Source of the DNA: Chromobacterium paludis
GTDB taxonomy: Bacteria > Pseudomonadota > Gammaproteobacteria > Burkholderiales > Chromobacteriaceae
Assembly (NCBI RefSeq): GCF_008275125.1
Contig: NZ_CP043473.1
Span: 4,215,775-4,279,774 of the forward strand
Direction: 5' to 3'
Length of the DNA stretch: 64,000 nucleotides
Part shown: positions 44,002 through 64,000 of the stretch, piece by piece
Layout: the number at the start of each line of letters is the position of its first letter
Numbering within the stretch: the stretch's first letter is position 1
Notes under the pieces: generated by a model
What the model saw: only the letters and a program-made list of their open reading frames with translations
What the model was told of the DNA's origin: nothing
Databases searched by the model: none
Program-made: the position numbers and the translations under genes

Positions 44002-44038
44002 TCATGATGCGGCGCAATAGCGGGGCCTGGTCGCATTA

Positions 44039-44057: not shown

Positions 44058-44072
44058 TGCAACGGGAATGAG

Positions 44073-44089: not shown

Positions 44090-44223
44090 CAGGGGTGGGC
44101 GTATATCAGCTGGCTTTCGCGGCGGGGCGGTGAGGGACTCGCCGACGGGACAGGAAGGCGGGAGCAAGGCAGCGCTTTTTGCTACACTCCGCTTGAATAT
44201 CAAGACACTGCGGGAGTCCGAAT

Positions 44224-44511: not shown

Positions 44512-44696
44512 ATGGCGGAGGCGAATTAGACATCGCTCCTGGCGCACGCTCGCGGCCTGCTGCGACATCGCGCGGGGATGCCGCCAAAACCTAGTCATGC
44601 GTGTCGATATGGCCTCATTCAAACAAGGGAGTCCGGTTTGACATCCACAAGCGCAGCACTACAGTCCAAAGCCGTGCGAGAAGGGACGGCCCGCTG

Positions 44697-46236: not shown

Positions 46237-46303
46237 TTGGGGGTATCCATCAACCCGGATGGCATCGCTTCCATCCGTTTGACAACAATAGCGGTAGTGG
46301 TGA

Positions 46304-47043
46304 ATGGCAAATCGAGATCTGAAAAATTCTCCTCGTCCGTCTCGCGGACGCGGCAACTCCTCCTCTTCGCGCAGCGGCGGCGGGGGGCTGATGGCCGGCC
46401 TGATCATGGGCCTGATCATCGGCGTTGCGGTGGCGGTGGGATTAGCCATGTATCTCAATCGGTCGCCGGAGCCGTTTCAAGTAAAGAACGCGCACAAGGC
46501 GGAAACGACCCAAGCGCCAACGCCAACTGAATTGCTGGCGCCGGGAACCAAGATCGCCGAGGAGCCGCCTGCAGGGCCGGCTTCCGCGCCCGCGCCCGCC
46601 CTGCGCGCGCCACGCTGGACAGTACCGACTCGGTTCCATTGCCACCGCCGGCGCCGCATGAGGCCAAGCCTAAGCCGGCTGCGCCGGCGAAAAGCGGCAA
46701 GGACGATCAGCGCTTTGATTTCTACAAGATACTGCCGGGTCAAGTGGATGCGGTGACGTCGGATGCCAAGGGCGACAAAGGTGGGGAACCTTCGACTGGC
46801 GCTTCGGCCAAAAAGGTCTACCTGCAGCTGGGTGCCTTCCAGAACCAGGATGAAGCGGATAACTTGAAGGCCAAGCTGGCCTTGCTGGGCGTGGAGGCCA
46901 AGATCCAGTCGGTCAACGTGCCGGACAAGGGCATGGTGCACCGGGTTCGAGTCGGACCTTTGAGCCGTCCGGACGATGTGGACAGGTTGAAGGCGCAATT
47001 GAAGCAGAACGGCATCGCCGCCAGCGTGGTGAAGGCCGAGTAG
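46304..47043 (+). pseudogene. SPOR-domain membrane protein (FtsN-like), frameshifted
   Basis: The N-terminal part (MANRDLKNSPRPSRGRGN, then a membrane helix GLIMGLIIGVAVAVGLAMYL) and the Pro/Ala-rich linker are in one frame. The C-terminal SPOR domain (KVYLQLGAFQNQDEADNLKA, VHRVRVGPLSRPDDVDRLKA) is in another. The break is at a GC run at 46603-46610. Removing one GC pair restores 246 codons with the join ALRATLDSTDSVPLPPPAP. SPOR domains bind denuded septal peptidoglycan, so the protein likely acts in cell division. As read it would lose its SPOR domain. A sequencing error is possible. Confidence 0.82.
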
Positions 47044-47071
47044 TCGATCCAAGCAAACACGGGAAAACAAG

Positions 47072-47683
47072 ATGAAGAAATGGTTGTTATTGTTGCTGCT
47101 GGCGGCCAGCGGCATGGCGAACGCGGCACTGGAGCTGGGCAAGGACTACACCATGCTGAGCACGCCGCAGCCGGTGGCAGATCCGAAAAAAGTGGAAGTG
47201 ATCGAGTTCTTCTCTTATCACTGCATCCATTGCTATGACGATGATCCGGCGATGAATGCCTGGGCCAAGAAGCTGCCGGCCGACGTGAGCTTCCGCAAGG
47301 AGCAGATCGTTTGGCAAAAGTCGATGGAGGGCTTCGCCCGCATGTTCGCCACCTTCAAGGCGACCGGCACGCTGGACAAGCTGCACCGCGCGGCGTTTGA
47401 CGCGCAGATCAAGCAGCGCATCAACCTGGCGGATCCGCAGCAGTTCACTTCCTGGATCAAGCAGCAGAAGGGCGTGGACAGCGCCAAGTTGCTGCAGACC
47501 TACAACTCCTTCGGCATCAACGCCCAGGTGGCGCGCGCGACGCAGATCACGCGCGATTACCAGATCCAGGGCACGCCGACGGTCATCATCAACGGCAAAT
47601 ACGTGGTGGTGACCAGCACGCCGGAGCGCATGACCCAGGTCATGAACGAGTTGATCGCCAAGGCGCGCAGCGAGAAAAAGTAA
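47072..47683 (+). CDS. dsbA: Thiol:disulfide interchange protein DsbA
   Basis: Periplasmic oxidase that introduces disulfides. It is 203 aa. A signal peptide (KKWLLLLLLAASGMANA) precedes a thioredoxin fold with an inserted helical domain. The active site is CIHC in FFSYHCIHCYDDDP rather than the common CPHC. The cis-proline loop is IQGTPTVIINGKY. It follows the SPOR gene by 28 bases and ends at a strong terminator. The change of the first x residue would be expected to tune redox potential. Confidence 0.94.
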   Translation: MKKWLLLLLLAASGMANAALELGKDYTMLSTPQPVADPKKVEVIEFFSYHCIHCYDDDPAMNAWAKKLPADVSFRKEQIVWQKSMEGFARMFATFKATGTLDKLHRAAFDAQIKQRINLADPQQFTSWIKQQKGVDSAKLLQTYNSFGINAQVARATQITRDYQIQGTPTVIINGKYVVVTSTPERMTQVMNELIAKARSEKK

Positions 47684-47703
47684 GCGCGTCGGGCGCGTTG
47701 AGG

Positions 47704-47728
47704 AAAGGGCGGCCTGGCCGCCCTTTTT
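47704..47728 (+). terminator. Rho-independent terminator of dsbA
   Basis: GGGCGGC / GCCGCCC stem flanked by AAA and TTTTT, with a 3-base loop, 21 bases after the dsbA stop. Confidence 0.88.
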
Positions 47729-47809
47729 GCATCGGGTGGCGCTGGAAATAAATATGTAAAAAAGCCTTGACGCATTAGTGGGGGAGCGGTATTATTCGTT
47801 CTCTCCTGA

Positions 47810-47886
<77 letters not shown>

Positions 47887-47893
47887 AATCCAG

Positions 47894-47924
47894 AAAAGCC
47901 GAATCTTAATAGATTCGGCTTTTT
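47894..47924 (+). terminator. Rho-independent terminator of the tRNA gene
   Basis: A 13-bp stem AAAAGCCGAATCT / AGATTCGGCTTTT with a TAAT loop, eight bases after the tRNA. Confidence 0.9.
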
Positions 47925-47929
47925 GCGTT

Positions 47930-48549
47930 CCTCCCGTCGCTTCTTTCAAACTGTGGCCGCTGCGCTGCAATATCAGTATAAATCTAATTGTAACAAAATG
48001 TAGCGCGTCAGATGGCGGCGATTCGTCAAGTACAATGTCTTAAACCATTGTCAGGGTTATAGATTTTGCCACCCCCGCATATTGATGCTAATCAACCGAA
48101 TTGCATATCCTGGCCGGAGCGTCTGTTGATCTTCGTCAAGGCCCTTGAAATATCAGGCAAAACTGTTTCTAATACGCCCGCTTGAGGCCTGCCTGCGACG
48201 AATTGCCGCAGCGGCATAGCGTGAAATACTGATGTTCGTGTTTGCCGGATGCCTGTCTTCCTGCGCCGTACGCCGGCGCTCACCCGGACAGTGGGTCTTC
48301 AGCTGTCACCTCATCGACCGGAGACGACGCTAGCGTCGGCTCCCCCGGAGCGAATCCGCCGTGGAAACGGATGCGCATCGGCGAATCGCGGAATCCGCGA
48401 GCCCTAAAACCTGTGGTTTTGCCTGACGGCCTGTCCCTCTTTGTTGGGGCGCGGCCGTCTGCTGGACATTTTTCTGGCGTTGGAGCGTGGCTCGCAACGC
48501 CCGTTGCGCATCGGCGCGTTGAAGGATTTTTAACCCGTAAAGTCGTAAG
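47930..48549. other. Upstream region of the cyo operon
   Basis: About 620 bases without a supported gene. A 103-codon frame at 48242-48553 is GC-biased but shows no motif and overlaps the cyoA start. The region contains one candidate anaerobic regulator site and must hold the cyo promoter. Confidence 0.5.
48126..48139 (+). promoter_or_regulatory. Candidate FNR/ANR box upstream of cyoA
   Basis: TTGAT-CTTC-GTCAA differs from the TTGAT-N4-ATCAA consensus at one position. It lies about 410 bases before cyoA. Oxygen-dependent control of bo3 oxidase by FNR-type regulators is common. The distance makes the assignment tentative. Confidence 0.35.
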
Positions 48550-49491
48550 ATGAGAAACCATAGACCCTCCCGCCTGTTGTGGGGGCTTTCTCCGCTCTTC
48601 GCACTGCTGCTCTCGGGATGTCAAGGCGGTATCCTTGACCCCAAGGGCCCGGTCGCAGCCGAGCAGAAGTCCCTGATCATCACGGCAACCGCGCTGATGC
48701 TGCTGGTGGTCATCCCGGTGATCGTGATGACCCTGGTTTTCGCCTGGAAATACCGCGCCAGCAACAAGGACGCCGCCTACGAGCCGAAGTGGTCGCATTC
48801 GACCAAGATCGAGCTGGTGGTCTGGCTGATCCCCTGCGTCATCATCGCCTTCCTGGCGACGCTGACCTGGCACACCACGCACAAGCTGGACCCGTACCGT
48901 CCGCTGGATTCGGACAAGAAACCGATCCAAGTGCAAGTGGTGGCGCTGAACTGGAAGTGGTTGTTCATCTATCCGGAACAGCAAATCGCCACCGTCAACG
49001 AGCTGGTGTTCCCGGCGGATACGCCGGTGAACTTCAAGATCACCTCCGATGCGGCGATGAACTCCTTCTTCATCCCGCAGCTTGGCGGCCAGATCTACGC
49101 CATGGCCGGGATGCAGACCCAGCTGCACCTGCTGGCGAGCGAGCCGGGCACCTATCACGGCTTCTCGTCCAACTACAGCGGCGCCGGTTTCTCCGGCATG
49201 AAGTTCAACGCCATCGCCACCAAGACCCCGGCCGAGTTCGACGCCTGGGTGGCCAAGGTGAAGGCCTCCGGCCAGAAGCTGGATGCGCCGAACTACTTGC
49301 AGCTGCTGAAGCCTAGCGAGAAGAATCCGGTGGCCTACTACGCGTCGACCACGCCGTACCTGTTTGAGGCCGTGCTGCACAAGTACATGGCCGGTCGTCC
49401 GTCCCTGGCCGACAGCGATGACGCCATCAAGCTGGCCAAGATGACCAAAGAACTGTGCGCCGCCATCACGCCGCCGGTTGTCAAGGAGTAA
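48550..49491 (+). CDS. cyoA: Cytochrome bo3 ubiquinol oxidase subunit II
   Basis: It is 313 aa. The lipoprotein signal peptide ends at LLSGC, followed by two membrane helices and a periplasmic cupredoxin domain without the CuA ligands, as expected for a quinol oxidase: [58 protein letters not shown]. It is the first gene of cyoABCDE and is intact, but the next gene is interrupted, so the complex probably cannot assemble. Confidence 0.95.
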
Positions 49492-49497
49492 AGATTG

Positions 49498-49994
49498 ATG
49501 TGGTTAGGTAAACTGACTCTGGACGCGATTCCGTACCATGAGCCCATCATCATGGGGGCGCTTGGCGGCGCCGGCCTGATCGGGCTGATGCTGTTCGCGC
49601 TCATCACCAAGTTCGGTAAGTGGGGCTATCTCTGGAAAGAGTGGCTGACTTCGGTCGATCACAAGAAAATCGGCGTGATGTACATCATCGTCGCCATGAT
49701 CATGCTGCTGCGCGGCTTCGCCGACGCGCTGATGATGCGTACCCAATTGGCCGTCGCCACCGGCGGCAGCCACGGCATTTTCCCGCCGGAACACTATGAT
49801 CAGATCTTCACCGCCCACGGCGTGATCATGATCATCTTCATGGCGATGCCGTTCATGACCGGCCTGATGAACATCGTGGTGCCGCTGCAAATCGGCGCGC
49901 GCGACGTGGCCTTCCCCTTCCTGAACTCGCTGAGCTTCTGGCTGCTGGTTTCGGCCGTGATCCTGGTCAACCTGTCGCTGGGTGTGGGCAACTT
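49498..49994 (+). pseudogene. cyoB: Cytochrome bo3 oxidase subunit I, 5' fragment (interrupted by an IS21-family element)
   Basis: The N-terminal 165 codons of Cyo[41 protein letters not shown], the heme-b ligand region [20 protein letters not shown], up to NLSLGVGN. The frame then runs 13 codons into the insertion and stops at 50034. The other part lies at 52381-53934. Joining 49994 to 52389 restores a 680-aa protein with no other change, so the insertion appears recent. Confidence 0.95.
49987..49994 (+). repeat. Target-site duplication of the IS21 element, left copy
   Basis: GGCAACTT, repeated exactly at 52381-52388 on the other side of the element. Eight bases is within the usual IS21-family range. 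Confidence 0.93.
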
Positions 49995-50111
49995 TGTTAA
50001 ACAGCGTGCAAAAGTGACCAGGTTCCCGGGGTAAACAGCGTCCAATTTTGACCACCCCGGGCATGTGCCACACTTCGTCTTTTTGGCGAGGGCAAACCTG
50101 GAGTGATTTGC

Positions 50112-51602
50112 ATGGAAACCATCGGCAAGATCCGACGCCGTCACCTGGTGGGCAACGAGAGCATCAGCGCTGTTGCCCGCTCCCTCAACCTCTCCCGCAA
50201 CACCGTCAAGAAATACCTCAAGGCCACCACCGCCCCGCAATATCAGCGCCAGCCGCGCCATCCCAGGCTCGGCGCCTTCATGGACACGCTGAACGCCTGG
50301 CTCAAGCGCGATAGCCAGCTCCCCAAGGCCCAACGCCGTACCGCCCGCCGCCTGTTCGAATGCCTGCAGGCCGAGGGGTACAGGGGCGCCTACGACAGCA
50401 TCCAGCGCCACGTCAAAGCCTGGAAGGCCGCTCAGCCCGGCACGCTCACCCCAAAGCAGGCTTTCGTCCCGCTGCTCTTCGCGCCCGGCGAAGTTTGCCA
50501 ATTCGATTGGAGCTACGAGCAGGTGGTGCTCGGCGGTATCGCCCAGACCATCAAGCTGGCGCACTTCCGCCTGGCTTATAGCCGCCAGCCTTTCGTCATC
50601 GCCTATCCGCGCGAAACCCAGGAAATGGTGCTGGACGCTCACGTCCAGGCTTTCGCCTTCTTTGGCGGCGCGCCGCGCAAGGTGATCTACGACAACCTCA
50701 AGGCAGTGGTGGACGCCATCTTTACCGGCAAGTCCCGCCGTTTCAACAGCCGCCACCTGGCTTTGGCCAATCACTACCTGTTCGAGCCGGTGGCCTGCAC
50801 GCCGGCATCGGGCTGGGAGAAAGGGCAAGTGGAGAATCAGGTCGGCAATATCCGGGAATGGCTGTTCACGCCCACCCCGCGCTTTGCCGACTTCGCGGCG
50901 CTCAATGCCCATCTGGCGCAACGCTGCCGCGAACTGGGGCAACGCCAACACCCGCACCAGCCGGTGACGGTGGCCGCAGCCTGGGCAGACGAGCGGCAGC
51001 AGCTGACGCCGATCGCCATGCCGTTCGACAGCTATGTGGAGCAGGCGCTGCGCGTCTCCAGCACCTGCCTGGTGACGATAGAGCGCAATCGTTACAGCGT
51101 GCCGGCGCAATGGGCGGGCAAGGTGGTGTCGGTGCGCGTCAGCGCTGGCCAGATCCGCGCCGTCGCCGACGGCGCCGAGATCGCCTGCCACGACCGTCGC
51201 TTCGGGCGGGATCAGTGGATCTGCGAACCCTGGCACTACGTGCCGATCCTGCAAACCAAACCCGGCGCCTTGCGGCATGGCCGGCCCTTTGTCGAATGGG
51301 TGCTGCCGGCGGCGATTGAAACCGTGCGCCAGGCGCTGATGAAAGAAGCCAAAGGCGATCGGGCCTTCGCCGATCTGCTGCTGGCCGCGCGAGAAACCGG
51401 CCTGGAAGCGCTGGAAGTGGCCTGCCAGCTGGCGCTGGAGCACAAGGCTATCAGCGCGCCCATCATTCTGAATGAGCTGCGCCGGCTGACCGAACCCGCC
51501 CGTCCGGCAGCGTTGAGCGTGATGGAGAACTTGCAGCTGAAAGAAGCGCCGGCGGCGAACTGCGCGCGTTACGACCAGTTGCTGGAGGGCTGCCATGACT
51601 GA
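50112..51602 (+). CDS. istA: IS21-family transposase IstA
   Basis: DDE transposase of 496 aa. It starts with a helix-turn-helix ([38 protein letters not shown]). The catalytic core follows: [14 protein letters not shown] with the first Asp, [13 protein letters not shown] with the second, and [16 protein letters not shown] with the Glu. A C-terminal Mu-type beta-barrel region ([15 protein letters not shown]) follows. ATG 50112 has GGAG about eight bases upstream; GTG 50103 is the alternative. It overlaps istB by eight bases. Confidence 0.95.
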
Positions 51603-52326
51603 TCCCCTGAGCAAACTGAAAGCGCTGAAGCTGTACGGGATGGCCAGCGCCTGGGGAGAACTGATGGCCGAACCCCGCCGCCAACCTTTGACCGGCGAAG
51701 CGATGCTGCTGCGACTGTTGGAGGCGGAACAGGCCGACCGCCAAGCGCGCAGCCTGAGCTACCAGATGAAAGCCGCGCGCTTCCCGCACCACCGAGATCT
51801 GACAGGCTTTGACTGGGCGGAAAGTCCGCTGCAGTCAGACAGATTGACCGCGCTGGCCGGCGGCGACTACCTGGCGGAAGCGCGCAACCTGATTCTGGTG
51901 GGCGGCACCGGGACGGGCAAAACCCACCTGGCGACAGCGCTGGGGGTGGCGGCGATCCATCAGAGCAAGCGGGTGCGGTTCTATAACGCGGTGGACCTAG
52001 TCAATCTGCTGGAGCATGAAAAGCGCGCCGGCAAAGCCGGGCACCTGTCGCGTCAACTGATGCTGATGGACGCGGTGATCCTGGACGAGCTGGGCTACCT
52101 GCCGTTTCCGGAATCAGGCGGCGCGCTGCTGTTTCACCTGATCAGCCAGTTGTACGAGAAGACCAGCCTGATCGTGACGACGAACCTGAGCTTCGGGGAA
52201 TGGGTGAGCGTGTTCGGCGACGCGAAGATGACGACGGCGCTGCTGGACCGGGTGACGCACCACTGCGACATTCTGGAGACGGGGAACGATTCCTACCGGT
52301 TCAAGAAGCGCCGGAAAGCGGTCTGA
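51595..52326 (+). CDS. istB: IS21-family ATP-binding helper protein IstB
   Basis: AAA+ ATPase of 243 aa, related to DnaC, that helps IstA choose targets. Walker A is [17 protein letters not shown]; Walker B is [13 protein letters not shown]. The arginine-containing sensor region [18 protein letters not shown] and [18 protein letters not shown] follow. Its ATG overlaps the end of istA, showing coupled translation. Confidence 0.96.
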
Positions 52327-52380
52327 TGCCTGGTCAAAATTCAACGCTGACAGGTGGTCAAAATTCGACGCTGATTGACA

Positions 52381-53934
52381 GGCAACTTCGCCCGCACCGG
52401 CTGGGTGGCCTATCCGCCGCTGGCCGAACTGGGCTTCAGTCCTGACGTGGGGGTGGATTACTACATCTGGGCCCTGCAGTTGTCAGGCCTAGGGACGACG
52501 CTGACGGCCATCAACTTCCTGGTGACCGTGATCAAGATGCGCGCCCCGGGCATGAAGCTGATGGAAATGCCGATCTTCACCTGGACCTGCACCTGGGCCA
52601 ACGTGCTGATCGCCACCTCCTTCCCGATCCTGACCGGCGCCCTGGCCATGCTGACGCTGGACCGCTACCTCGACTTCCACTTCTTCACCGCGGAAGCGGG
52701 CGGCAACGCCATGATGTACCTGAACCTGTTCTGGGCCTGGGGCCACCCCGAGGTGTACATTCTGGTTCTGCCGGCCTTCGGCATTTTCTCGGAAGTGGTT
52801 TCCACTTTCGCCGGCAAGCGCCTGTTCGGCCACAAGTCCATGATCTACGCCAGCGGCGCGATCTCCATCCTGGGTTTCATGGTTTGGCTGCACCACTTCT
52901 TCACCATGGGCTCCGGCGCCAATGTGAACGCCTTCTTCGGCATCGCGACGATGATCATCTCGATCCCGACCGGCGTGAAGCTGTTCAACTGGCTGTTCAC
53001 CATCTACAAGGGCCGCCTGCGCTTTGAAACCCCTATCCTGTGGACCCTGGGTTTCATGGTGACCTTCTCCATCGGCGGCATGACCGGCGTGCTGATGGCG
53101 GTGCCGGGCGCGGACTTTGTGCTGCACAACAGCCTGTTCCTGATCGCCCACTTCCATAACACCATCATCGGCGGCGCCGTGTTCGGCTATCTGGCCGGCT
53201 TCACCTTCTGGTTCCCCAAGGTGTTCGGCTTCAAGCTGGAGCCTAAGCTTGGCAAGGCCGCGTTCTGGTTCTGGCAGATCGGCTTCATGTTCGCCTTCAT
53301 GCCGCTGTACGTGCTGGGCTTCATGGGCATGACCCGTCGCCTGAACTACACCACCAATCCGGAATACGAGCCGTGGCTGTATGTGGCCCTGTTCGGCGCG
53401 CTGCTGATCGCTTGCGGCATCGGCTGCCAGTTGCTGCAGATCGTGGTCAGCGTGATCAAGCGCAACGAACTGAAGGACGAAACCGGCGACCCGTGGAACG
53501 GCCATACCCTGGAATGGTCCACTTCCTCCCCGGCGCCGTTCTACAACTTCGCCAAGCTGCCGCAGGTGCATGACATCGACGCCTTCACCGACATGAAGGA
53601 AAAGGGCGTGGCTTACGCGGTGCCGAAGTCCTACGAGCCTATCCACATGCCGCGGAACACTTCGGCCGGCGTTTTCATCGGCGCCTTCGCCACGGTGTTC
53701 GGCTTTGCGATGATCTGGCACATCTGGTGGCTGGCCATCGTCGGTCTGCTGGGCATCATCGGCAGCATGCTGGCCCGCGCCTACGACAACAACCTGGACT
53801 ACTACGTGCAGCCGGATGAAGTGGAAGCCATCGAGCGCGCCCGCTTCGAGAAGCTGGGCATCGATGTGGACAACTACACCGAGCGCGATCAGACGAAGCC
53901 GAAGAAGGCTGCCCGTCCGACCACGACCGCGTAA
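52381..53934 (+). pseudogene. cyoB: Cytochrome bo3 oxidase subunit I, 3' fragment
   Basis: About 515 codons of CyoB after the insertion: [18 protein letters not shown], the CuB ligand region [18 protein letters not shown] with the His-Tyr pair, [11 protein letters not shown] (two CuB histidines) and [17 protein letters not shown] (heme ligands). It starts with the right copy of the target duplication. No start codon with a ribosome binding site is apparent, so it is not expected to make a working protein. Confidence 0.95.
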
Positions 53935-53949
53935 CAGGCTGGATTTGAC

Positions 53950-54561
53950 ATGACGACAATTGTAAAAGATGCGCATGGCGCGCATGAGGACCACGAGCAC
54001 CACGACAGCGGCAAGCAAACTGTCCTGGGCTTCTGGTTCTACCTGATGACCGACTGCATTCTGTTCGCGACGGCGTTCGCGGCGTATGCGGTGCTGTTCC
54101 GCAACGTGGCGGAAGGCGTGTCTGGCAAGGACATCTTCGAACTGCCGTACGTGCTGGTGGAAACCGCGGCCCTGCTGCTGTCTTCCATCACCTACGGCTT
54201 CGCGATGATCGCCGGCCACAAGGGCAACAAGTCCGCGGTGCTGGGCTGGCTGTTCGTGACCTTCCTGTTCGGCGCGGCCTTTATCGGGCTGGAAATCAAT
54301 GAATTCCATCACCTGATCGCCGAAGGGCACGGCCCGAACCAGAGCGCCTTCCTGTCGGCCTTCTTCGGCCTGGTGGGCCTGCACGGCCTGCACGTGACCG
54401 GCGGCCTGCTGTGGATGGCCGTGATGATGATGGAAGTGGCCAAGACCGGCTTGACCGGCCGCGCCATGACCCGCCTGAACTGCCTGTCGCTGTTCTGGCA
54501 CTTCCTCGACATCGTGTGGATTTGCGTGTTCACCGTCGTCTACCTGAAAGGAGCCATGTGA
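53950..54561 (+). CDS. cyoC: Cytochrome bo3 ubiquinol oxidase subunit III
   Basis: It is 203 aa with five membrane helices and a His/Asp-rich N-terminus ([17 protein letters not shown]). Family segments are [37 protein letters not shown] and [19 protein letters not shown]. It is intact, but expression may suffer polar effects from the IS21 insertion upstream. The stop overlaps the cyoD start by one base. Confidence 0.95.
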
Positions 54562-54881
54562 TGAGTCACGCGCATGAGCATGAGAACCACGGCAGCGTGA
54601 AGAGCTATGCAGTCGGCTTCGTGCTGTCGGTGATCCTCACCGCCATTCCGTTCTGGATGGTGATGGGCGGTGCCTTCACCAAGCAAGCCACGCTGATCGG
54701 CATCTTCGCCCTGGCCGTGGTGCAGATCGTGGTGCATCTGAAGTACTTCCTGCACCTGGACTTCAGCAAGGAAGGCAAGCTCAACAGCTTCTCCTTCCTG
54801 TTCACCGGCATGGTGATCGTGCTGCTGGTCGGCCTGTCGATCTGGATCATCTACACCGCCGACTCGCTGATGATGCGCTAA
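54561..54881 (+). CDS. cyoD: Cytochrome bo3 ubiquinol oxidase subunit IV
   Basis: It is 106 aa with three membrane helices. It starts [20 protein letters not shown] and contains [20 protein letters not shown], typical of the subunit IV family. The ATG lies in the TGATG junction with cyoC, with AAGGAG upstream. The frame is open further upstream, but that is inside cyoC and non-homologous. Confidence 0.95.
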
Positions 54882-54892
54882 GGACGGACCCG

Positions 54893-55804
54893 TTGAAGTT
54901 CAAACGCTATCTTCAGGTCACCAAGCCGGGCATCATCTTCGGCAACCTGATCTCGGCCGCCGGCGGTTTCCTGCTGGCGGCGCAGGGTTCGATCGACTGG
55001 TGGCTGCTCGCGGCCACCGTCATCGGCTTGTCGTTGGTGGTGGCTTCCGGCTGCGCGATCAACAACTGCATAGACCAGGATATCGACGCCAAGATGGCCC
55101 GCACCCAGAAACGGGTGCTGGTCACCGGCGCGATGAGCACCAAGGCGGCGCTGGCGCACGGCATCGTGTTGGGCGCGGCCGGTTTCGCCCTGCTGTGGTT
55201 CGGCACCAATCCGCTGGCCACCGGCTGCGTGCTGTTCGGCTTCATCATCTATGTGGGCGTGTACAGCCTGTACATGAAGCGCAACTCGGTGTACGGCACC
55301 GTGGTGGGCAGCCTGTCCGGCGCGGTGCCGCCGGTGGCTGGCTACTGCGCCGTCACCGGCCGCTTCGACATGGGCGCGGCCATCCTGCTGGTGATGTTCA
55401 GCTTGTGGCAGATGCCGCATTCCTACGCCATCGCCATCTTCCGTTTCAAGGACTATGAGGCGGCCGGCATTCCGGTGCTGCCAGTGGTGAAGGGCATTTC
55501 CGCCGCCAAGCAGCAGATCGTGCTCTACATCCTGGCCTTCGCGGCGGCGACGGTGATGCTGGTGTTCGGCGGCTACGCCGGCTACGGCTACCTGGCTGTG
55601 GCCTGCGCCACCAGCCTGTGGTGGCTGAAGATGGCGTTGTCCGGCTACAAGCGCGAGGTGGATGACCGCGCCTGGGCGCGCCAGGTGTTCTTCTTCTCCA
55701 TCATCACCATCACCTCGCTGAGCGTGATGATGGCGCTGGATGGCCAGACGCCGGGCGAAAGCCATCGCCCGCTGCTGACCGCGGACGCGGGCATGTATCG
55801 CTGA
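54893..55804 (+). CDS. cyoE: Protoheme IX farnesyltransferase (heme O synthase)
   Basis: Integral membrane UbiA-family prenyltransferase that adds farnesyl to heme b to make heme o. It is 303 aa from a TTG start at 54893, with AAGGA upstream. Motifs are [20 protein letters not shown], the Asp-rich [20 protein letters not shown] and the second site [20 protein letters not shown]. Heme o or heme a from this enzyme may still serve another oxidase even if the bo3 enzyme is dead. Confidence 0.95.
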
Positions 55805-55826
55805 GCCGGAAAGAACCGCTCACACC

Positions 55827-55858
55827 ACGGGGAGTCGCGAAAGCGGCTCCCCGTTTTT
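55827..55858 (+). terminator. Rho-independent terminator of the cyo operon
   Basis: A stem ACGGGGAGTCGC / GCGGCTCCCCGT (one T-G pair) with a GAAA tetraloop is followed by TTTTT. Confidence 0.9.
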
Positions 55859-56486
55859 CATGCGCGGCTGCCGCAGCCATCCGGCCATCCGTTCCCCGCA
55901 CTTGCCATACGGGATGGCGCAGGGGAGGGCTCAAGGAGCGGCGACGTCTCCAGGCTGGCGCGTGTCGCTGGAGCCGGATGTTGATTTCCCGTCCTTCCTT
56001 TCCCGATTTTTCCCCTTCTTTGAATTCGCAGGCCGGCGCATCGCGCCCTGCCGCGGCCCTGTCGCGCAATGGCATGACCTGTCCTAATTAACGGCCTGTT
56101 CGGGCCATTCCTGCCAATATTTTGCTGCTTTTGCGCAACAGTTAAGGCGATTGCCGCCATGCTTCGCGCCGAAGCCGCGCGCTGGAGAAGCGAAGAGCAA
56201 GCGGTAGCGGGTTCGAATTGGTATTGCTTCTCATTTTAAATCAATGCCCGGCGCGCCTTGTCGCTGCGCGAGCATGCCCAAGGAATGGCGTCTAGCACAA
56301 GCCATGCCGCATGCCAAGTTTGTTCTGTGGATTGCTAATCAGGAAAATCAATATGCGATTGACATCGGCCATGATATTCATCAAACATTCAATGAATTTA
56401 TTTATGGTTTGACTGGGATTGATCGAGATATTGATCGGTTTTCATCGAATGGATGTGCGCTTGTTTTTTTATCTGAGGAGTGTGTC
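55859..56486. other. Upstream region of the biosynthetic gene cluster
   Basis: About 630 bases with no supported gene. The second half is richer in A and T than the surroundings. The exporter frame is open back to 56244, but those codons have no exporter homology. Cluster promoters and regulator sites are expected here; none could be identified. Confidence 0.4.
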
Positions 56487-57902
56487 GTGAGTTCACAAGA
56501 GGGTGGGGCGCCTAACGCCCATGCTGCGCGGCAGCGCAGAGCTTTTTCCACATTGGCCATCGTGCAGGCGACGCTGATTTTCGCCATCACCTTGGTCGCG
56601 GTGCCGCTGCCCAATATCGGCAAGGAGTTTGGCCTGGACACGGCGGCGCTGATTCTGGTGAATGCCGCTTATGGCCTGGCCTTCAGCGGCCTGCTGTTGT
56701 TTGGCGGCCGGCTGGCCGACCGTTTCGGCGGCAAGCCGGTCTTCATCGCGGGACTGTTGGTGTTTGGCGGCGCCTCGGCCGCCGCTGCGTTGTCGCCCAG
56801 CTTCCTCGTGCTGATCGCGATGCGCTTTCTGCAGGGCGTGGGCGCGTCCATGGTCGCGCCGGCTGCGCTGTCCTTGCTGCGCGGCGCTTTTCCGGAACCG
56901 GCGGCTTTCGGCCGCGCCATGGCGAGCTGGGGCAGCGTTTCCGTGCTGGGCGCCACGGCGGGCACGGTGATCTCTGGCGTGATGATCACTTGGCTGTCCT
57001 GGCGCTGGATGTTCATGGTGCCGGTGGCGGTCAGCGTCTTCGCCTTGCTGGTGCAGGGCGCCTGGCTGCCGGCCTCGCCTGAGCGGCGCGGGAGCGAAGG
57101 GTTGGACCTGTGGGGCGCGGTCCTGGCCACGGCCGGCATTTCGCTCTCCAGCTATGGCCTGATCCTGACCGGCGAAGCCGGCTGGCTGTCTCGCGGGGTG
57201 ATGTTGCCGTTGCTGGTCGGCGTGGCCTTGCTGCTGGCTTTCTTCATGGTGGAGCGGCGCGCCGCCTCGCCGCTCTTGCCCCCCGGCTTCATCGCGCCGC
57301 GCAGGCTGGCAGGCCTGATAGGCGTGATGCTGGCGGCTGCCAGCATGGGCACGGTGTCTTTCCTGTGGTCGCTATACCTGCAGCAGGTGCGAGGCTGGAC
57401 GCCGCTGTCGACCGCCCTGGGCTTTTTGCCCTATCTGCTGGTGCTGATCGCCTCCAGCCGCATCGCCGCTCCGCTGACCGGACGCCTGGGGGCCACCCGC
57501 TTGCTGCAGGGCGGCCTGGCGATAGGCGCCGTGGGCCTGGCGCTGTTGGCCGGGCTGGATCGGCACTCCGCCTATCTGACGGACCTGTTGCCGGGTCTGA
57601 TCGTACTGCCCATCGGCACCGCGATGATGTTCGCAAGTTCAGCCGTCATCGCCACCAGCGATGTGCCGCCGCATCAGTCCGGCCTGGCGGGGGGCGTGAT
57701 GAATACCGCCATGGAGCTGGGGCCGACCTTGGGCATGGCCATCTTCATGTCGGTAGCCGCGTTGCGGACGGATGCGGTTGAAGGCTATGCCTGGGCGCTG
57801 TGGGCCGCTGCCGTCTCCTTCGTGGTGGCGGCGCTGTTGGTGGGCAGGCTGGCGCGCATGCGAGGCGTGTCCGAAGGCCAGCTGGCGACGCAGAAACTGT
57901 AG
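56487..57902 (+). CDS. MFS drug/metabolite exporter (DHA2, EmrB/QacA-like)
   Basis: About 471 aa from GTG 56487, with GAGGAG six bases upstream. Fourteen hydrophobic segments. Motif A is GGRLADRFGGKPVFIAG after the second helix. Motif C-like Gly/Pro-rich sequence is SVSVLGATAGTVISGVMI, followed by WLSWRWMFMVPVAVSVFALL. It directly precedes the NRPS with the same orientation and probably exports the product and protects the producer. In dithiolopyrrolone clusters an MFS exporter gene is part of the core set. The frame is intact, in contrast to the genes after it. Confidence 0.88.
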   Translation: MSSQEGGAPNAHAARQRRAFSTLAIVQATLIFAITLVAVPLPNIGKEFGLDTAALILVNAAYGLAFSGLLLFGGRLADRFGGKPVFIAGLLVFGGASAAAALSPSFLVLIAMRFLQGVGASMVAPAALSLLRGAFPEPAAFGRAMASWGSVSVLGATAGTVISGVMITWLSWRWMFMVPVAVSVFALLVQGAWLPASPERRGSEGLDLWGAVLATAGISLSSYGLILTGEAGWLSRGVMLPLLVGVALLLAFFMVERRAASPLLPPGFIAPRRLAGLIGVMLAAASMGTVSFLWSLYLQQVRGWTPLSTALGFLPYLLVLIASSRIAAPLTGRLGATRLLQGGLAIGAVGLALLAGLDRHSAYLTDLLPGLIVLPIGTAMMFASSAVIATSDVPPHQSGLAGGVMNTAMELGPTLGMAIFMSVAALRTDAVEGYAWALWAAAVSFVVAALLVGRLARMRGVSEGQLATQKL

Positions 57903-57941
57903 GTTTCGCAGTTCAAGACAAAGCAATCACAAGGAGAACAC

Positions 57942-60900
57942 ATGCACACCATCATCGAGGCGATCCGAGCCTGCGGTTTGACGGCCATGGCAGGGGCCGA
58001 GCGGGACGATGAGCACGAAGCCGCCAGCGCGGAACAGATCCGCTTGCTGCTGCAAGGTGGTTTGCCGCGTGAGGACGCCGCTGCGGAGCCGATGCAGCGG
58101 GACGATGAGGCCTTCGCGCTGACCGATATCCAGTATGCCTACCTGATAGGCCGCAACCCCGGCCTGGAGCTGGGGGCATTGCCAGCGCTTTCTATCAGGA
58201 GTGGGAGGTGGAGGCGCTGGACCTGGCGCGCCTGGAGCACGCCTTGGCCAGCACGGTGGAGCGCCACGCCGCGTTGCGGACGGCGATCCGCGATGGCGGC
58301 GAGCAAGCCGTGGCGGTGGCGGCGCCTAGCTGTCGCATAGCCTTGACCGACACGCGCGCCTGGGATGAGGCGGCGCGCACGCGTCATCTGGATGCGGAAC
58401 GGCAGCGCATGCGCCATACCATGCTGCCTTTGAACCAGGCTTCGCCGTTTGAGATCCGGGCCTCCTTGCTGGAGGGGGGCGTGACCCGGCTGCATCTGTT
58501 GTTCGATCTGATGTTTCTGGATCTGCGCAGCGTGCGCATCATCATGCGGGACTGGTGGCGCGCCTATTCCGGCCAGCCGCAGGCGGCCTTGCCGGCCCAG
58601 GCCTCCTTCGCCGGCTATCGCGCGGCGGAAGCGGCGCGGCAGGCCGGCCCCTGGGGGGCGCGCGATCGCCAATACTGGCTGAGCCGGCTGGACGCGATGA
58701 GCGCCGCGCCGGAGCTGCCGCTGGACACCTCCCCCGAGCATCTGACGCCGCCGCTTACGGTTCGCGCCAGCCGCGAGTTGAGCGCGGACAAGCTGGCCGC
58801 CTTGCGCGGCGTGGCTGCCAGCAGGGGGCTGACCGCGGAGAGCCTGATGTTGGGCGCCTATGTGGAAACGCTGCGCCAGTGGTCCAAGCAGCAGGCGTTC
58901 ACTTTGACGCTGACGACGTTTGGCCGCCGGCCGCACTTCGATGGCGTAGCCGATATCGCGGGCAACTTTCTGCAACCGCTGCTGCTGCCGATCACCGCCG
59001 AGGCGGGCGAAAGCTTTGCCGAGCGGCTGGCCAAGGTGCAAACCGATTTGCTCTGCCACCGCTGGCATGCCGGTTACAGCGGCATCCAGTTGTTGCCGCG
59101 AACAGGGCGCGCCAACAGGGCCAGCGCGTATCCGGCTCGCCGGTGGTGTTCAGCAATATGCTGGACGCCGACCTGAACGAGCTGGTGGAGGAGGGCGGCT
59201 GGCCAGGCGCGCGCCATGGTGTATGAACGCAACCAGACGCCGCAGGTGTGGCTGGAAAACCAGCTGACGCGAGACGGCGACATCCTGCGCGTGAACTGGA
59301 ACCATGTGGATGGCCTGTTCCCGGCAGGCATGGTCGAGGACATGCTCGATTGCTATATGGCCTTGTTGGCGCGCTTGCCTTGGCGACGAGGGGGTGTGGA
59401 CCACCCGCGGCGCGGTGACGGCGCTGCCGGCGGCGGACCTGGCGGAGCGCGAGTGCGCCAACGCCACGGAAACGCCGCTGCCGCTGGCCCTGCTGCATGA
59501 GCTGGTTCTGCAACGCGCCCGCAGCCAGGCCGACGCGGGTGGGGTGCAGCAGGGCGACGCCAGCATGAGCTTTGGCGAGCTGGCACGCCGCGCCGGCGCG
59601 ATCGCGCAAGCCATCCGCAGCCAGACCGAGGTGAAGCCTGGCGAGATGATAGCGGTATCGTTGCCGCAAGGTCCGGAGCTGATCGCCCGCCATTTTGGGC
59701 GCGCTGATTGCCGGCGGCGCCTATGTCGCGATAGACCCGACCTTGCCCGCCGAGCGCCGTCAGAGCCTGTTGCGCCGCTGCGCCGCGCGCGCGCTGCTGA
59801 GCCGCGGCGACATCCACCCGCAAGAAACGCACGCGGCGCTGCCGCGCATTGATGTGGAACGCGTGCCGGCAGGCGAGGCATGGCCGGAAGCGGCCTCGCT
59901 TCAGTCGCTGGATGATCTGGCCTATGTGATCTTCACCTCCGGCTCCACCGGCGAGCCCAAGGGCGTGATGATCAGTCACCGCAATGCCGCCAATTACCGT
60001 GCTCGACATCAATCGCCGCTTCGGCGTGAGCCGTGACGACGCGGTGTTTCGGTGGCGCCGGCCGGCTTCGATTTGTCCGTCTACGACTACTTCGGCGTGC
60101 TGGCGGCCGGCGGCCGCGTGGTGTTCCAGGATGTCGCCGGCGCGAGCGATCCGCAGGCATGGTGCCAGACGCTGATACAGCACCGGGGTGACGATCTGGA
60201 ACAGCGTGCCGGCGCCGGTCAAGGCGCTGGCCGATCGCTGCGGCGATGCGCTGGCGCAGGACCGCGCTGCGGCTTGGGTGTTGATGAGCGGGGACTGGAT
60301 TCCCATCGACCTGCCTGCCGGATACGCGAGTGCCTGCCTGCGGTGGAGGTGGTCAGCCTCGGCGGCGCCACCGAAGGCTCGATCTGGTCCATCTGCCACC
60401 CGATCGAGCGGGTGGACCCGTCTTGGAGCAGCATCCCCTACGGCAAGCCGCTGGCCAACCAGCGCTTCCATGTGGCTGAACGACTGGCTGGCCCCATGCC
60501 CGAGTGGGTGACCGGCGAGCTCTATATCGCGGGGTTGCGGCGTGGCCCAGGGGTATCTGGCCGATGCCGAGAAAGACCGCGCCAACGCTTCATCGTCGAT
60601 CCGCGCAGCGGCGAGCGCTTATATAAGACGGGCGATCTGGGCCGTTATCTGGACGACGGCGTGATCGAAATCCTGGGGCCGCGAGGACAAACCAGGTGAA
60701 GATCAACGGCTACCGGGTGGAGCTGGGCCGAGGTCGAGGCCTGCCTGCTGGAACACCCGGAGGCCAATCATGTGGTGCTGGACGCGCCGCGCCACGCCCA
60801 AAACCGGGCAGCGCACCTGGTCGCCTATGTGGCGGCGAAGACCCCGCCGCAGGGCGACGCCGGTTGGCAGAAGCTGCTGGATGGGCTGCGCGAGCTGGCG

Positions 60901-61306
60901 AGCAAGCAGCTGCCATCTTATATGGTGCCCAGCTACCTGGTGCCGGTGGACGAGATGCCGCTGACCGCCAACGGCAAGATCAACCGCGCGGCCTTGCCGC
61001 AGCCGTGGCAGGAGCGCGACGAGGCGGAGGCCGGCGCCGAGCCGGCGGGGCGAGCTGGGAAAACGAGCTTGCTGGCGCTGTGGCGCAAGCAACTCCGGCA
61101 TGAAGACTTCGGCGTGACCGACGGCTTTTCGATATCGGCGGCGATTCGCTGCACGCGGTGGGCTTGCTCCAGCGCCTTTGCGCGACCGCTACGCGCTGAC
61201 GCCGGAGCGTGAGCAGGACGTGATCGAAGGCTGTTCATGAACGCCAGCATACGCGACTTCGCCAAGCTGCTGGATGGCCCTGGCCGTTGTGGCGGAGGAG
61301 GCGTGA
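57942..61306 (+). pseudogene. NRPS with heterocyclisation (Cy), cysteine-activating A and T domains; frame broken many times
   Basis: Reading across frame breaks gives one Cy-A-T protein of about 1120 aa. The Cy domain starts FALTDIQYAYLIGRNPGLEL and has the DxxxxDxxS motif as DLMFLDLRS (about 58505). The A domain has [20 protein letters not shown], then FDLSVYDYFG, VTIWNSVPAP, LMSGDWIP and GGATEGSIW. Specificity residues read D-L-Y-N-L-S-L-I-W, the known cysteine code. The T domain is FDIGGDSLHA. The stop overlaps the oxidoreductase start. This architecture equals the dithiolopyrrolone NRPS (HlmE type), which joins two cysteines. At least ten single-base indels interrupt it, so it is either decayed or poorly sequenced. 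Confidence 0.82.
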
Positions 61307-62895
61307 TGGAGAACGCGACGATGACGAGCGGCGGCGAGTTCGACTTCATCGTGGTCGGCGGGCGGGTCTGCCGGCTGCGTGATGGCGGCGCGGCTGTCGG
61401 AAAACGGCAAGCACCGCGTGCTGCTGCTGGAGGCCGGGCCGGCCTCCGATGCGGCGCGCGAAGACAGCCCGTTGCGCGACGCTTCGCGCCTGGTGCTGAG
61501 CGGCTACAACTGGGATTACGAAGCTCATGTGCGCGGCGACGGCGAGCGCGGCGGCCGGCGCAAGCCCTTTGCCTACAGCCTGGGCAAGGTGATGGGCGGA
61601 TCGTCCGCCATCAATGGCGCGGGTGGCGCTCCGGGCCTTCCCCAGCGACTTCGCCGCCTGGGAGAGCATGGGTGTCCGACCCTGGTCTTGGGACAAGGTA
61701 CTGCCGTGGTTCCGCAAGATGGAGCATGACGTGGACCGCGCCGGACGAATGGCACGGGCAGCGATGGCCCGCTGCGGCTCAGACGGCCGGCCACGGGCGA
61801 GATTCCATCCGCTGGACCAGGCGTTCTCCTTGTCTTGCCAGCGCCAGGGCATGCCTTATGCCGATGACCTGAACTTGGGCGAAGACCCGGCGGTGGGGCT
61901 GGTGCCGGCCAATGTGCGCGGCCAGTCCGAGCGGATGGACGTCTATCGCTTCCTATCTGCAGCCGGTCCAGGGGCGCGCCAATCTGACCGTGAAAACCGG
62001 CGCCGAGGCGGCCGCGATCGTGTTCGAGGACCGCCGCGCCTGCGGCGTGGACGCAGTGGTGGATGGGCAGCGGCTGCGCTACGCGGCAAGGCGAGTGGTG
62101 TTGTGCGCCGGCGCGGTCGGCACGGCGGCCTTGCTGCAGCGCTCCGGGGTGGGCGATCCGGCGCAACTGAGGGAGGCCGGCATTCCGCTGCGCGCGGCCT
62201 TGCCGGCGGTGGGCCGCAACCTGACCGATCACGCCTCTTTGGTGCTGTGGGCCTTGCCCAAGCCCGGCGTATGCGTGCGGGGCCTGCCATGGCGCCAAGT
62301 GGCCGCCCGCGCCTGCAGCGGTTACGACGACAAGGTGGACGTGCAGATCGGCCTCTTGAACAACGTGGCCAGCGAGACCGTGCCCAGCTTCCAGGAGCGG
62401 GTGGCTTACCCGATGCTGGTGGGCGGCTCGGTCATGCTGATGCGGCCCAGGGCGCTGGGCGCGGTGCAGGCGCTGAGCGCGGATCCGGCCCAGCGGCCGC
62501 GGATAGACCTGCCCTTGAGCGACGACGAGGACATCGCCAGGCTGGCCGGCGGGGTGCGGCTACTATGGCGCGTGCTGAAGGATCCGCTGGTGTCCTGCTA
62601 TCTGGACGGCGTGCAGTTCTGGTCCGAATCCATGATAGGCAACCCGGCGGTGGTGGCCAGCGCGGTGCGCAACCTGGTCAATCCCGGCTGGCATGCGGTC
62701 GGCACGGTGAGAATGGGGCCGGCATCGGATCCCGCCTGCGCGGCGGGGGAGGACGGCGCGGTGCACGGGCTGGACGGCTTGACGGTGGCGGATGCCTCGC
62801 TGTTCCCGACCATTCCATCCATGCCCACCAATCTGACCACCATCATGTTGGCGGAGCGGCTGGCTGCGACGCTGCTGGACAAGGAGCGAGCATGA
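61306..62895 (+). pseudogene. GMC-family FAD oxidoreductase, frameshifted in its first 650 bases
   Basis: About 529 aa when frames are joined. ATG 61306 overlaps the NRPS stop. The FAD loop reads FDFIVVGG followed, in the next frame, by SAGCV and MAARLSENGKHRVLLLEAGP. An extra G at about 61350 causes that break. GKVMGGSSAINGA, the second GMC signature region, is clear. From 61960 to 62895 the frame is continuous, including NPGWHAVGTVRMGPASDP with the catalytic His and ASLFPTIPSMPTNLTTIM. It would be the HlmD-type alcohol/amine-oxidising step of a dithiolopyrrolone pathway. A role in another thiazoline pathway is possible. Confidence 0.8.
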
Positions 62896-63624
62896 CGGCG
62901 CAGCCTCGTCGAGTGGTATACGCCTTTCCGCACGCCGGCGGCTCCGCCGCCCTGTATCGAGCCTGGCAGGCCGAGTCCTGGGATGACGGCTTGCTGGTGC
63001 CGGTGGAAATGCCCGGCCGCGGTTTGCGCATCCGCATGCCGGCCATGGAAAGCCTGCCCGAACTGACGGCCTGGCTGGCCGATCAACTGTGCGGACCTGC
63101 GCGAGAGGCAGGCGCAGGGCGTGGCAGAGTGGGCGACCTTCGGCCATAGCTTCGGCGGCGTGCTCAGCGTGATCGTCGCCAGCGAAATGAGCCGGCGCCA
63201 TGGACTGACGCCGCGTTTCAGCGTGGTGTCGGCCTCGATCGCGCCCGCCATCCAGCCGGACGACGAGCGGCATCTGCTCAGCGACGAGCAGATCCTGGCC
63301 GTGGCCAGGGCCGACCAAGGCACGCCGGAGGCGGTGCTGCGAGAGCCGGCGCTGGCCGGCAGGGTGGTGGCCCAGCTGCGCTGCGATTACCGCTTGCGCC
63401 GGCAATTTTTGGCGCACCGCGGGCTGAGGGTGCCGCAGCCACTTCACTTGATAGGCGCCGAGCAAGACCCGCATGTCAGCTTGACGCAGTTGCGCGCCTG
63501 GGAACATCACAGCGAGGCCAGCGCCGCGCTGCACACCATACCCGGCGATCACTTCGCCATTTACCAGCATTGGCCGCGGGTACGCGACATTCTGTCGTTG
63601 TGTCCGCAGGAGTCAACCATATGA
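62892..63624 (+). pseudogene. Type II thioesterase, one frameshift
   Basis: An alpha/beta-hydrolase of about 243 aa. The first part reads VVYAFPHAGGSAALYRAW and VPVEMPGRGLRIRMP. The frame breaks near 63095. The second part continues AEWATFGHSFGGVLSVIVAS with the catalytic Ser, and ends with LHLIGAEQDPHVSL (Asp) and IPGDHFAIYQHW (His). Start and stop overlap neighbours by four bases, as in a tightly coupled operon. In the NRPS context it would edit or release carrier-protein-bound intermediates (HlmC type). Confidence 0.82.
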
Positions 63625-64000
63625 GTACGACACAGTTGGACGAATTTCGGCGGCATTGCCGCGATTTCCTGGCGCAAGCCGCCACGCCGCGGATGGCTCA
63701 GTGGGAGGCGCAAGGACGGGTGGACCGTGACTTCTGGGAGCAGGCCGGCGCGGCTGGCCTGCTGGCATCGGCGTTAGCCGCGAGCTGGGTGGCCGCGGCG
63801 AGAGCGACTTCCGTTACCCCATGATCCTGATCGAGGAACTGATCCGCGCGGGCATGAGCGTGCCGGGGCTGGTGTCGCACAACGATGTCATCGCCAGCTA
63901 CATCCTGACCCTGGGCACGCCGGAGCAGAAGCAACGCTGGTTGCCGGCGCTGTGCTCCGGCCGCGCCATCGGCGCGATCGCGATTACCGAGCCGCACGCC
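63621..64000 (+). pseudogene. Acyl-CoA dehydrogenase-like flavoprotein, 5' part, one frameshift, cut by the window end
   Basis: ATG 63621 overlaps the thioesterase stop. It reads STTQLDEFRRHCRDFLAQAA and [10 protein letters not shown], then loses one G near 63770 and continues in another frame as [40 protein letters not shown] and [12 protein letters not shown]. This is the N-terminal domain and FAD-binding region of the acyl-CoA dehydrogenase family. Here it would oxidise a carrier-bound cysteine Calpha-Cbeta bond (HlmB type). The C-terminal two thirds lie outside the window. Confidence 0.82.

What the first reader, a model, noticed from the sequence alone, without database searches (positions are those of the whole stretch)
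56487..64000. Dithiolopyrrolone (holomycin/thiolutin-type) biosynthetic cluster in a Chromobacterium-like genome
Seen: an exporter, a Cy-A-T NRPS, a GMC oxidoreductase, a thioesterase and an acyl-CoA dehydrogenase, all on one strand; the four enzyme genes are linked by four-base overlaps. The A-domain code reads D-L-Y-N-L-S-L-I-W, the cysteine signature, and the Cy domain keeps DxxxxDxxS. Known: holomycin clusters combine HlmE (Cy-A-T, cysteine), HlmD (GMC oxidoreductase), HlmC (thioesterase), HlmB (acyl-CoA dehydrogenase) and an MFS exporter. Inference: this is a dithiolopyrrolone pathway, cut by the window before the expected decarboxylase, acyltransferase and dithiol oxidase.
Basis: partly seen in the sequence, partly recalled or inferred. 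Interest (0 to 1): 0.9.

Follow-up and report, generated by a model that had tools for sequence, protein, structure and literature searches.

The report
Dithiolopyrrolone antibiotic genes in Chromobacterium
A Chromobacterium chromosome carries a complete set of genes of the kind that makes holomycin-like sulphur antibiotics; the family is known, the host genus looks new for it, and an uncharacterised membrane protein gene keeps turning up with these clusters.

Summary
Observation confirmed: exporter, Cy-A-T NRPS, GMC oxidoreductase, thioesterase and acyl-CoA dehydrogenase lie on one strand at 56487-64000. The reading as a dithiolopyrrolone (DTP) cluster is supported. The window is the end of one 4.28-Mb contig and repeats the contig's first 31.3 kb (untrimmed circular overlap). 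The end copy carries indels that break NRPS, GMC and thioesterase; the start copy is intact and runs on past the window. There the expected genes follow: N-acyltransferase, globin and a decarboxylase (70% identical to that of the thiomarinol plasmid), in holA-holG order, with one extra serine acetyltransferase. The predicted HlmI-type dithiol oxidase was not found here, nor above 30% identity in 18 related genomes, as published for Gram-negative DTP clusters. The NRPS falls inside the DTP clade. Two of 19 Chromobacterium species genomes carry it; a partly decayed copy sits in another genus. I found no paper reporting DTPs in Chromobacterium. Lead: DUF2938, usually beside an ArsR-rhodanese gene, was in 24 of 24 DTP-marker-positive genomes, against 3 of 14 marker-negative Xenorhabdus and 9 of 58 Chromobacteriaceae without the cluster. 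The product and its acyl group are untested.

The parts
56487..57902 (+). MFS exporter (DHA2-like), first gene of the cluster; longest frame opens at 56244
   Evidence: PF07690 E 1.2e-44; 471-aa C. alticapitis counterpart, 90% identical
57942..61306 (+). Cy-A-T NRPS, cysteine code DLYNLSLIW, Cy motif DLMFLDLRS; frame broken by indels in the window copy, intact (1115 aa) in the contig-start copy L005:5301-8648
61303..62895 (+). GMC oxidoreductase (HolB/HlmD-like); broken in the window copy, 528 aa intact in L005:8645-10231
   Evidence: PF00732/PF05199; 56% to the pTML1 counterpart; coordinates
62892..63624 (+). thioesterase (HolC/HlmC-like); broken in the window copy, 244 aa intact in L005:10228-10962
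   Evidence: PF00975 E 1.5e-29; 42% to pTML1; coordinates
63621..64000 (+). acyl-CoA dehydrogenase (HolD/HlmB-like), cut by the window end; complete as L005:10959-12089 (376 aa)
   Evidence: PF00441/02771/02770; 62% to pTML1; coordinates
30226..64000 (.). second copy of the contig's first 31.3 kb, plus one IS insert (untrimmed end overlap of a circular chromosome). The rest of the cluster, absent from the window, lies at contig 1:32120-37155 (L005): N-acyltransferase 12120-12986, globin 13015-13533, serine acetyltransferase 13606-14415, decarboxylase 14449-15021, DUF2938 15084-15578 (-), ArsR-rhodanese 15552-16343 (longest frame), phosphopantetheinyl transferase 16340-17155

Best explanation
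A complete Gram-negative-type (hol/hom-like) dithiolopyrrolone biosynthetic cluster in Chromobacterium. Shown: gene content, order, domain make-up, A-domain code, phylogeny. Inferred from the studied clusters: the Cy-A-T NRPS loads cysteine twice and joins a Cys-Cys unit on its carrier domain; the acyl-CoA dehydrogenase, GMC oxidoreductase and decarboxylase-like flavoprotein oxidise, cyclise and decarboxylate it to the bicyclic dithiol holothin; the thioesterase releases it; the GNAT enzyme acylates the amine; the MFS protein exports the product; the disulphide closes without an HlmI-type enzyme, by air or a housekeeping enzyme. The extra serine acetyltransferase would raise the cysteine supply, and the neighbouring phosphopantetheinyl transferase would prime the carrier domain. 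The acyl group is unknown. ArsR-rhodanese plus DUF2938 are probably a sulphur-responsive regulator and a membrane protein for self-protection or tuning; this last step is a guess.
For: Seven core genes in the order of holA-G on pTML1: identities 51, 56, 42, 62, 46, 71 and 70%. Decarboxylase hits at 55-72% in known producers: Photobacterium galatheae, strain SANK 73390, Xenorhabdus, Saccharothrix algeriensis (producer status from papers; Xenorhabdus recalled). DTP NRPS clade 100/100. All 12 genes recur in C. alticapitis at 68-97%. Review PMC3826145 gives the roles (passages); PMC10134970 gives the cysteine-reloading step on DtpB (first of four parts).
Against: No chemistry. No HlmI-type oxidase found in the genome: the only match is a thioredoxin reductase at 27%. 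The GNAT is the least conserved of the core genes against C. alticapitis (78% against 89-97%) and is cut down in the G005 copy, so the final acyl step may vary or be lost. The serine acetyltransferase has no match (1e-10) in the 18 genome loci outside Chromobacterium or in the two plasmid clusters.
Confidence: 0.94

Rival explanations
1. A siderophore or other thiazoline pathway that happens to share a Cy-A-T cysteine module with GMC, thioesterase and exporter genes.
For: Cysteine-type NRPS modules occur in many pathways: apart from the two DTP plasmids, the 28 other records listed share 37-41% identity over 86-97% of the NRPS, and one Streptomyces plasmid (NBC_01435) even has GMC, thioesterase and exporter genes near its NRPS.
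Against: Downstream genes here are the DTP set, not salicylate or polyketide genes. NBC_01435 has no match to dehydrogenase, GNAT, globin or flavoprotein in 33 kb. The NRPS sits in the DTP clade at 100/100, with 50% identity to HolA.
Confidence: 0.03
2. The cluster is a decayed, silent copy: the broken frames in the window are real mutations.
For: NRPS, GMC and thioesterase are broken in the window copy; a related copy in G005 has a fragmented exporter, GNAT and serine acetyltransferase.
Against: The same genome's contig-start copy is intact with 0 substitutions. Gapped bases pile up at whichever contig end each copy is nearer. C. alticapitis counterparts align without stops, except three stops that lie ahead of the likely true starts of exporter and ArsR-rhodanese.
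Confidence: 0.03
3. A real 31-kb tandem duplication rather than an assembly overlap, so the cell has two clusters, one inactive.
For: The two copies differ by an IS21-type insert at window 49995-52380, present only in the end copy.
Against: The copies sit exactly at the two ends of a single contig, show no base substitutions, and each is worst at its own contig end; an IS hop within the culture explains the insert.
Confidence: 0.04

Closest known systems
holA-G (holothin part of thiomarinol), plasmid pTML1, Pseudoalteromonas sp. SANK 73390 (NC_015708)
   Same: All seven genes, same order and strand; a DUF2938 gene lies about 6.2 kb from the NRPS gene
   Different: 42-71% protein identity; no serine acetyltransferase between globin and decarboxylase; no ArsR-rhodanese or exporter match (1e-10) in the 24-kb stretch; hybrid with a pseudomonic-acid pathway
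Xenorhabdus DTP clusters (xenorhabdin-type; product name recalled)
   Same: Core genes in the same order, GNAT missing from two of 13 loci; DUF2938 and ArsR-rhodanese nearby in most
   Different: In the two loci inspected (L022, L025), and in Algicola L037, a gene of the calcineurin-like phosphoesterase type (PF00149 checked for L025) fills the slot where Chromobacterium has the serine acetyltransferase
Holomycin clusters of Streptomyces clavuligerus (hlm) and Yersinia ruckeri (hom), as described in PMC3826145 (passages)
   Same: Same seven functions
   Different: hlm has HlmI oxidase, a free-standing C domain and a second thioesterase; Yersinia lacks HlmI as here
Chromobacterium alticapitis MWU14-2602 cluster (L019)
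   Same: All 12 genes, 68-97% identical, same site after the cox-cyoE genes
   Different: No groEL or groES match beside it in the stretch searched

Membership tests
Dithiolopyrrolone cluster, Gram-negative hol/hom type | Single Cy-A-T NRPS with cysteine A-domain code and intact Cy motif | tested here: met
   (cysteine meaning of the code recalled)
Dithiolopyrrolone cluster, Gram-negative hol/hom type | GMC oxidoreductase, thioesterase, acyl-CoA dehydrogenase | tested here: met
   56, 42, 62% to pTML1
Dithiolopyrrolone cluster, Gram-negative hol/hom type | GNAT N-acyltransferase (HolE/HlmA) | tested here: met
   PF18014/PF00583; 46% to pTML1
Dithiolopyrrolone cluster, Gram-negative hol/hom type | Globin (HolF/HlmG) and PPC-decarboxylase-like flavoprotein (HolG/HlmF) | tested here: met
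   PF01152, PF02441; 71 and 70% to pTML1
Dithiolopyrrolone cluster, Gram-negative hol/hom type | Gene order A-B-C-D-E-F-G on one strand | tested here: met
   one extra gene between F and G
Dithiolopyrrolone cluster, Gram-negative hol/hom type | NRPS inside the DTP NRPS clade | tested here: met
   13 DTP-cluster rows against 4 others, 100/100; the program warns of long branches
Dithiolopyrrolone cluster, Gram-negative hol/hom type | Makes a dithiolopyrrolone | not testable with these tools
   needs culture and mass spectrometry
Streptomyces hlm type | HlmI-type dithiol oxidase | tested here: not met
   S. finlayi HlmI-like query (best PDB match 4ntd, with DepH and GliT further down) finds only a thioredoxin reductase at 27% in the genome
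Streptomyces hlm type | Free-standing condensation domain protein in the cluster | tested here: not met
   no such protein among the 12 scanned from exporter to phosphopantetheinyl transferase

The most novel reading that the evidence does not exclude
DUF2938 together with the ArsR-rhodanese regulator is an overlooked, dedicated part of Gram-negative dithiolopyrrolone systems: a persulphide- or dithiol-sensing switch controlling a small membrane protein with invariant His, Asp and Glu residues that protects the maker or takes over the dithiol-handling job done by HlmI in Streptomyces.
Probability: 0.28. Interest if true: 0.7.

Novelty: new member of a known kind. Interest (0 to 1): 0.45.

Why it matters
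It adds what looks like a new genus to the known carriers of a disulphide antibiotic class. It also makes two open points testable: how Gram-negative producers close and tolerate the reactive dithiol without HlmI, and whether DUF2938, a family of unknown function for which I found no convincing structural relative, is part of the answer.

Tried and rejected

DUF2938 as strictly DTP-specific: rejected. 9 of 58 Chromobacteriaceae genomes without the cluster also have it, and 11 of the family's 12 above-cut-off loci have ArsR-rhodanese beside it.

The two 21,605-base stretches are identical base for base, so they may be one region assembled twice.

The decarboxylase protein stands for 6 member sequences.

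Other plasmid NRPS loci as DTP clusters: NBC_01435 has NRPS, GMC, thioesterase and exporter but no match to dehydrogenase, GNAT, globin or flavoprotein in 33 kb; the Methylosinus stretch shows a long NRPS and a 9-kb gene named SDR oxidoreductase only.

Literature: listings of searches and passages of 12 papers (PMC3826145, PMC7793655, PMC10471698, PMC4359443, PMC11317636, PMC5577590, PMC12366304, PMC7930024, PMC6070831, PMC4962019, PMC12472026, PMC3039463) show no DTP or DTP cluster in Chromobacterium. In PMC5577590 12 of 15 places were shown and in PMC3826145 12 of 14. Listed co-mentions that I did not open include PMC5721475, PMC4245543, PMC3509537, PMC3695862, PMC2857357 and PMC7333567. Subscription papers and supplements were not searched. 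DUF2938 occurs in one paper of the library (listing only).

Full report
What the window is. The window is bases 4215775-4279774 of a single 4,279,774-base contig, its very end. Window 30226-49994 and 52381-64000 align to contig bases 1-31339 with 0 mismatches and only gaps. Over 52381-64000 there are 44 gapped bases (12 absent from, 32 extra in the window copy), none before window 58 kb and 40 at 59-62 kb. Over 30226-49994 there are 26, of which 23 lie opposite the first 5 kb of the contig and 24 are bases missing from the contig-start copy. So each copy is worst at its own contig end, as in an untrimmed circular assembly with thin coverage at both ends. It explains why NRPS, GMC and thioesterase are broken in the window but open in the contig-start copy, locus L005. 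I read the proteins from that intact copy.

The complete cluster. In L005 (contig 20001-40000) the order on the + strand is: MFS exporter 3603-5261; NRPS 5301-8648; GMC oxidoreductase 8645-10231; thioesterase 10228-10962; acyl-CoA dehydrogenase 10959-12089; GNAT N-acyltransferase 12120-12986; globin 13015-13533; serine O-acetyltransferase 13606-14415; decarboxylase-like flavoprotein 14449-15021; DUF2938 on the - strand 15084-15578; ArsR-rhodanese fusion 15552-16343 (longest frame; the true start is probably further in); phosphopantetheinyl transferase 16340-17155; then, on the - strand, groEL and groES (Pfam; groEL; groES by reading).

Details of the NRPS. Pfam gives Condensation, AMP-binding, AMP-binding_C, PP-binding. 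Code D-L-Y-N-L-S-L-I-W; Cy motif D-L-M-F-L-D-L-R-S. In 22 homologous rows aligned with it, D-x4-D-x2-S is kept in 21; S. finlayi has G in the last place. The fourth code position is D instead of N in 8 Xenorhabdus rows, two of which (L020, L021) are identical. The first three code positions were printed one residue off and were checked only for the window genome.

Comparison with known clusters. The best of 2,598 matching plasmid records is pTML1 of Pseudoalteromonas sp. SANK 73390, 49.9% over 97% of the NRPS. Its seven genes stand in the same order, at 51, 56, 42, 62, 46, 71 and 70% identity for NRPS, GMC, thioesterase, dehydrogenase, GNAT, globin and flavoprotein. A scan of genome contigs with the GMC protein returned 19 loci: C. 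alticapitis, 13 Xenorhabdus loci (two of them the identical X. hominickii stretches), two Pseudoalteromonas luteoviolacea, Vibrio sp. S9_S30, Alkalimonas collagenimarina, Algicola sagamiensis. All 19 carry NRPS, GMC, thioesterase, dehydrogenase, globin and flavoprotein in order; the GNAT was not found in L026 and L027. A tree of 17 NRPS rows separates 13 DTP-cluster NRPSs from 4 others at 100/100 (long branches flagged). The decarboxylase search lists Photobacterium galatheae (72%), SANK 73390 (70%), Xenorhabdus, Serratia, Pantoea, Pseudomonas, Streptomyces and Saccharothrix algeriensis (55%) among the 120 shown of 172 hits. So the kind is widespread and already known; what looks new is the host genus, as far as my literature searches go.

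Distribution near home. A DTP-type NRPS (90% or more) is in 2 of 19 genomes of the genus, the window's and C. alticapitis; other hits reach 41% at most, at a cut-off of 1e-150. Among 61 Chromobacteriaceae genomes the GNAT has a match at E 0.001 in 10, of which four are at 59% identity or more: the window genome, C. alticapitis (G012), G024 (Chromobacterium sp. IIBBL 290-4, named through) and G005, of another genus. Outside the genus only the GNAT was searched, so a cluster without GNAT could have been missed there. G005 has 8 of the 12 genes at 88-95%, the phosphopantetheinyl transferase at 78%, and exporter, GNAT and serine acetyltransferase cut down. G024 has only an exporter-GNAT pair with open frames, beside a mutator-family transposase (PF00872), and no close NRPS. 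C. alticapitis carries the block at the same place as the window genome, after cox and cyoE genes (by reading). G019 has DUF2938, ArsR-rhodanese and the phosphopantetheinyl transferase directly beside cyoE, but no match to the biosynthetic genes in the 3.4-kb stretch compared, none recognised by reading in 14 kb, and no close NRPS in the genome.

The dithiol oxidase. An HlmI-like protein of the S. finlayi plasmid cluster matches PDB 4ntd at 3.7e-106, with DepH and GliT further down (that 4ntd is HlmI is recalled). In the window genome it finds one match, 27% identical, a thioredoxin reductase with a CATC motif (name by reading). In 18 DTP-cluster genomes full-length matches are 23-28% identical and partial ones at most 30%. 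PMC3826145 states the same absence for Yersinia ruckeri and SANK 73390 (passages). In X. vietnamensis and X. indica a thioredoxin-reductase-like gene with a CATC motif lies a few kilobases upstream of the NRPS.

DUF2938. PF11158 was found in 18 of 18 DTP-cluster genomes reached through named loci. X. hominickii has two, but its two cluster stretches are identical over 21,605 bases and count once. In 30 Xenorhabdus genomes it is in 16 of 16 with a full decarboxylase orthologue (70% identity or more) and in 3 of 14 without. Of those 3, one (G079) keeps a decarboxylase remnant beside it, while G083 keeps a decarboxylase remnant and no DUF2938 (Fisher p 6.7e-6). In the Chromobacteriaceae it is, above the cut-off, in 3 of 3 with the cluster and 9 of 58 without (p 0.006). 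Counting each genome once, 24 of 24 marker-positive genomes have it: 18 named, plus G081, G084, G088, G092, G000 and G005; for G081, G084, G088 and G092 I saw only the decarboxylase, not the rest of the cluster. pTML1 also carries one. In 12 Xenorhabdus pairs on one contig (two from X. hominickii) the distance from the decarboxylase is 9.9-17.9 kb. In G088 the two are 1.85 Mb apart; in G092 the intact copy is about 0.2 Mb away and a broken one about 12 kb away; in G067, G069 and G077 they are on different contigs. ArsR-rhodanese lies within the 3.4-kb stretch in 19 of 21 Xenorhabdus loci and 11 of 12 above-cut-off Chromobacteriaceae loci. The tests ignore shared ancestry, and the pair also lives without DTP genes, so this is a lead, not a proof. 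No invariant cysteine, a confident all-helical model, no useful structural match; that it is a membrane protein is judged from its sequence. PMC3826145 reports that disrupting a rhodanese-like gene greatly lowers holomycin production in S. clavuligerus (passage), a suggestive parallel only.

Verdict. The finding is correct and its interpretation sound; the window happens to show the damaged end copy of a complete cluster. It is a new member of a known kind. The surprise is modest for a specialist; the DUF2938 association is the part I would follow.

Noticed in passing
window 49995-52380: An IS21-type element (IstB, PF01695; 5 identical copies in the genome, this one included) with an apparent 8-base target repeat interrupts the cytochrome-oxidase subunit I gene in the contig-end copy but is absent from the contig-start copy: the sequenced culture may have been mixed for this insertion (gene name by reading).
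   Followed up: partly
L005:17211-19173 (contig 37211-39173) and window about 31165-32664: A second groEL-groES pair lies right after the cluster, 81% identical in DNA to the other groEL about 35 kb away; the contig-start copy of that other groEL is split in two frames.
   Followed up: no
L041:9137-13771 (Chromobacterium sp. IIBBL 290-4): An exporter-GNAT pair with open frames (70 and 62% identical to the cluster's) and no biosynthetic genes, next to a mutator-family transposase: a leftover or a stand-alone tolerance pair.
   Followed up: partly
L097, about 5250-8213 (G019): DUF2938, ArsR-rhodanese and phosphopantetheinyl transferase directly beside cyoE, without the biosynthetic block that sits there in the window genome and C. 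alticapitis.
   Followed up: partly
L025:15100-15942, L022:10482-11324, L037:16164-17045: In two Xenorhabdus loci and Algicola a calcineurin-like phosphoesterase-type gene occupies the slot between globin and decarboxylase; role in the pathway unknown (Pfam for L025 only).
   Followed up: no
L023:3520-4470 and L027:3532-4482: A thioredoxin-reductase-like gene upstream of two Xenorhabdus DTP clusters: a candidate for dithiol handling or self-protection.
   Followed up: no
L037:13502-15616 (Algicola sagamiensis): Two GNAT genes in tandem in one cluster, hinting at two acyl groups.
   Followed up: no
L020 and L021 (Xenorhabdus hominickii): Two contigs carry a DTP stretch identical over 21,605 bases: a very recent duplication or an assembly doubling.
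   Followed up: no
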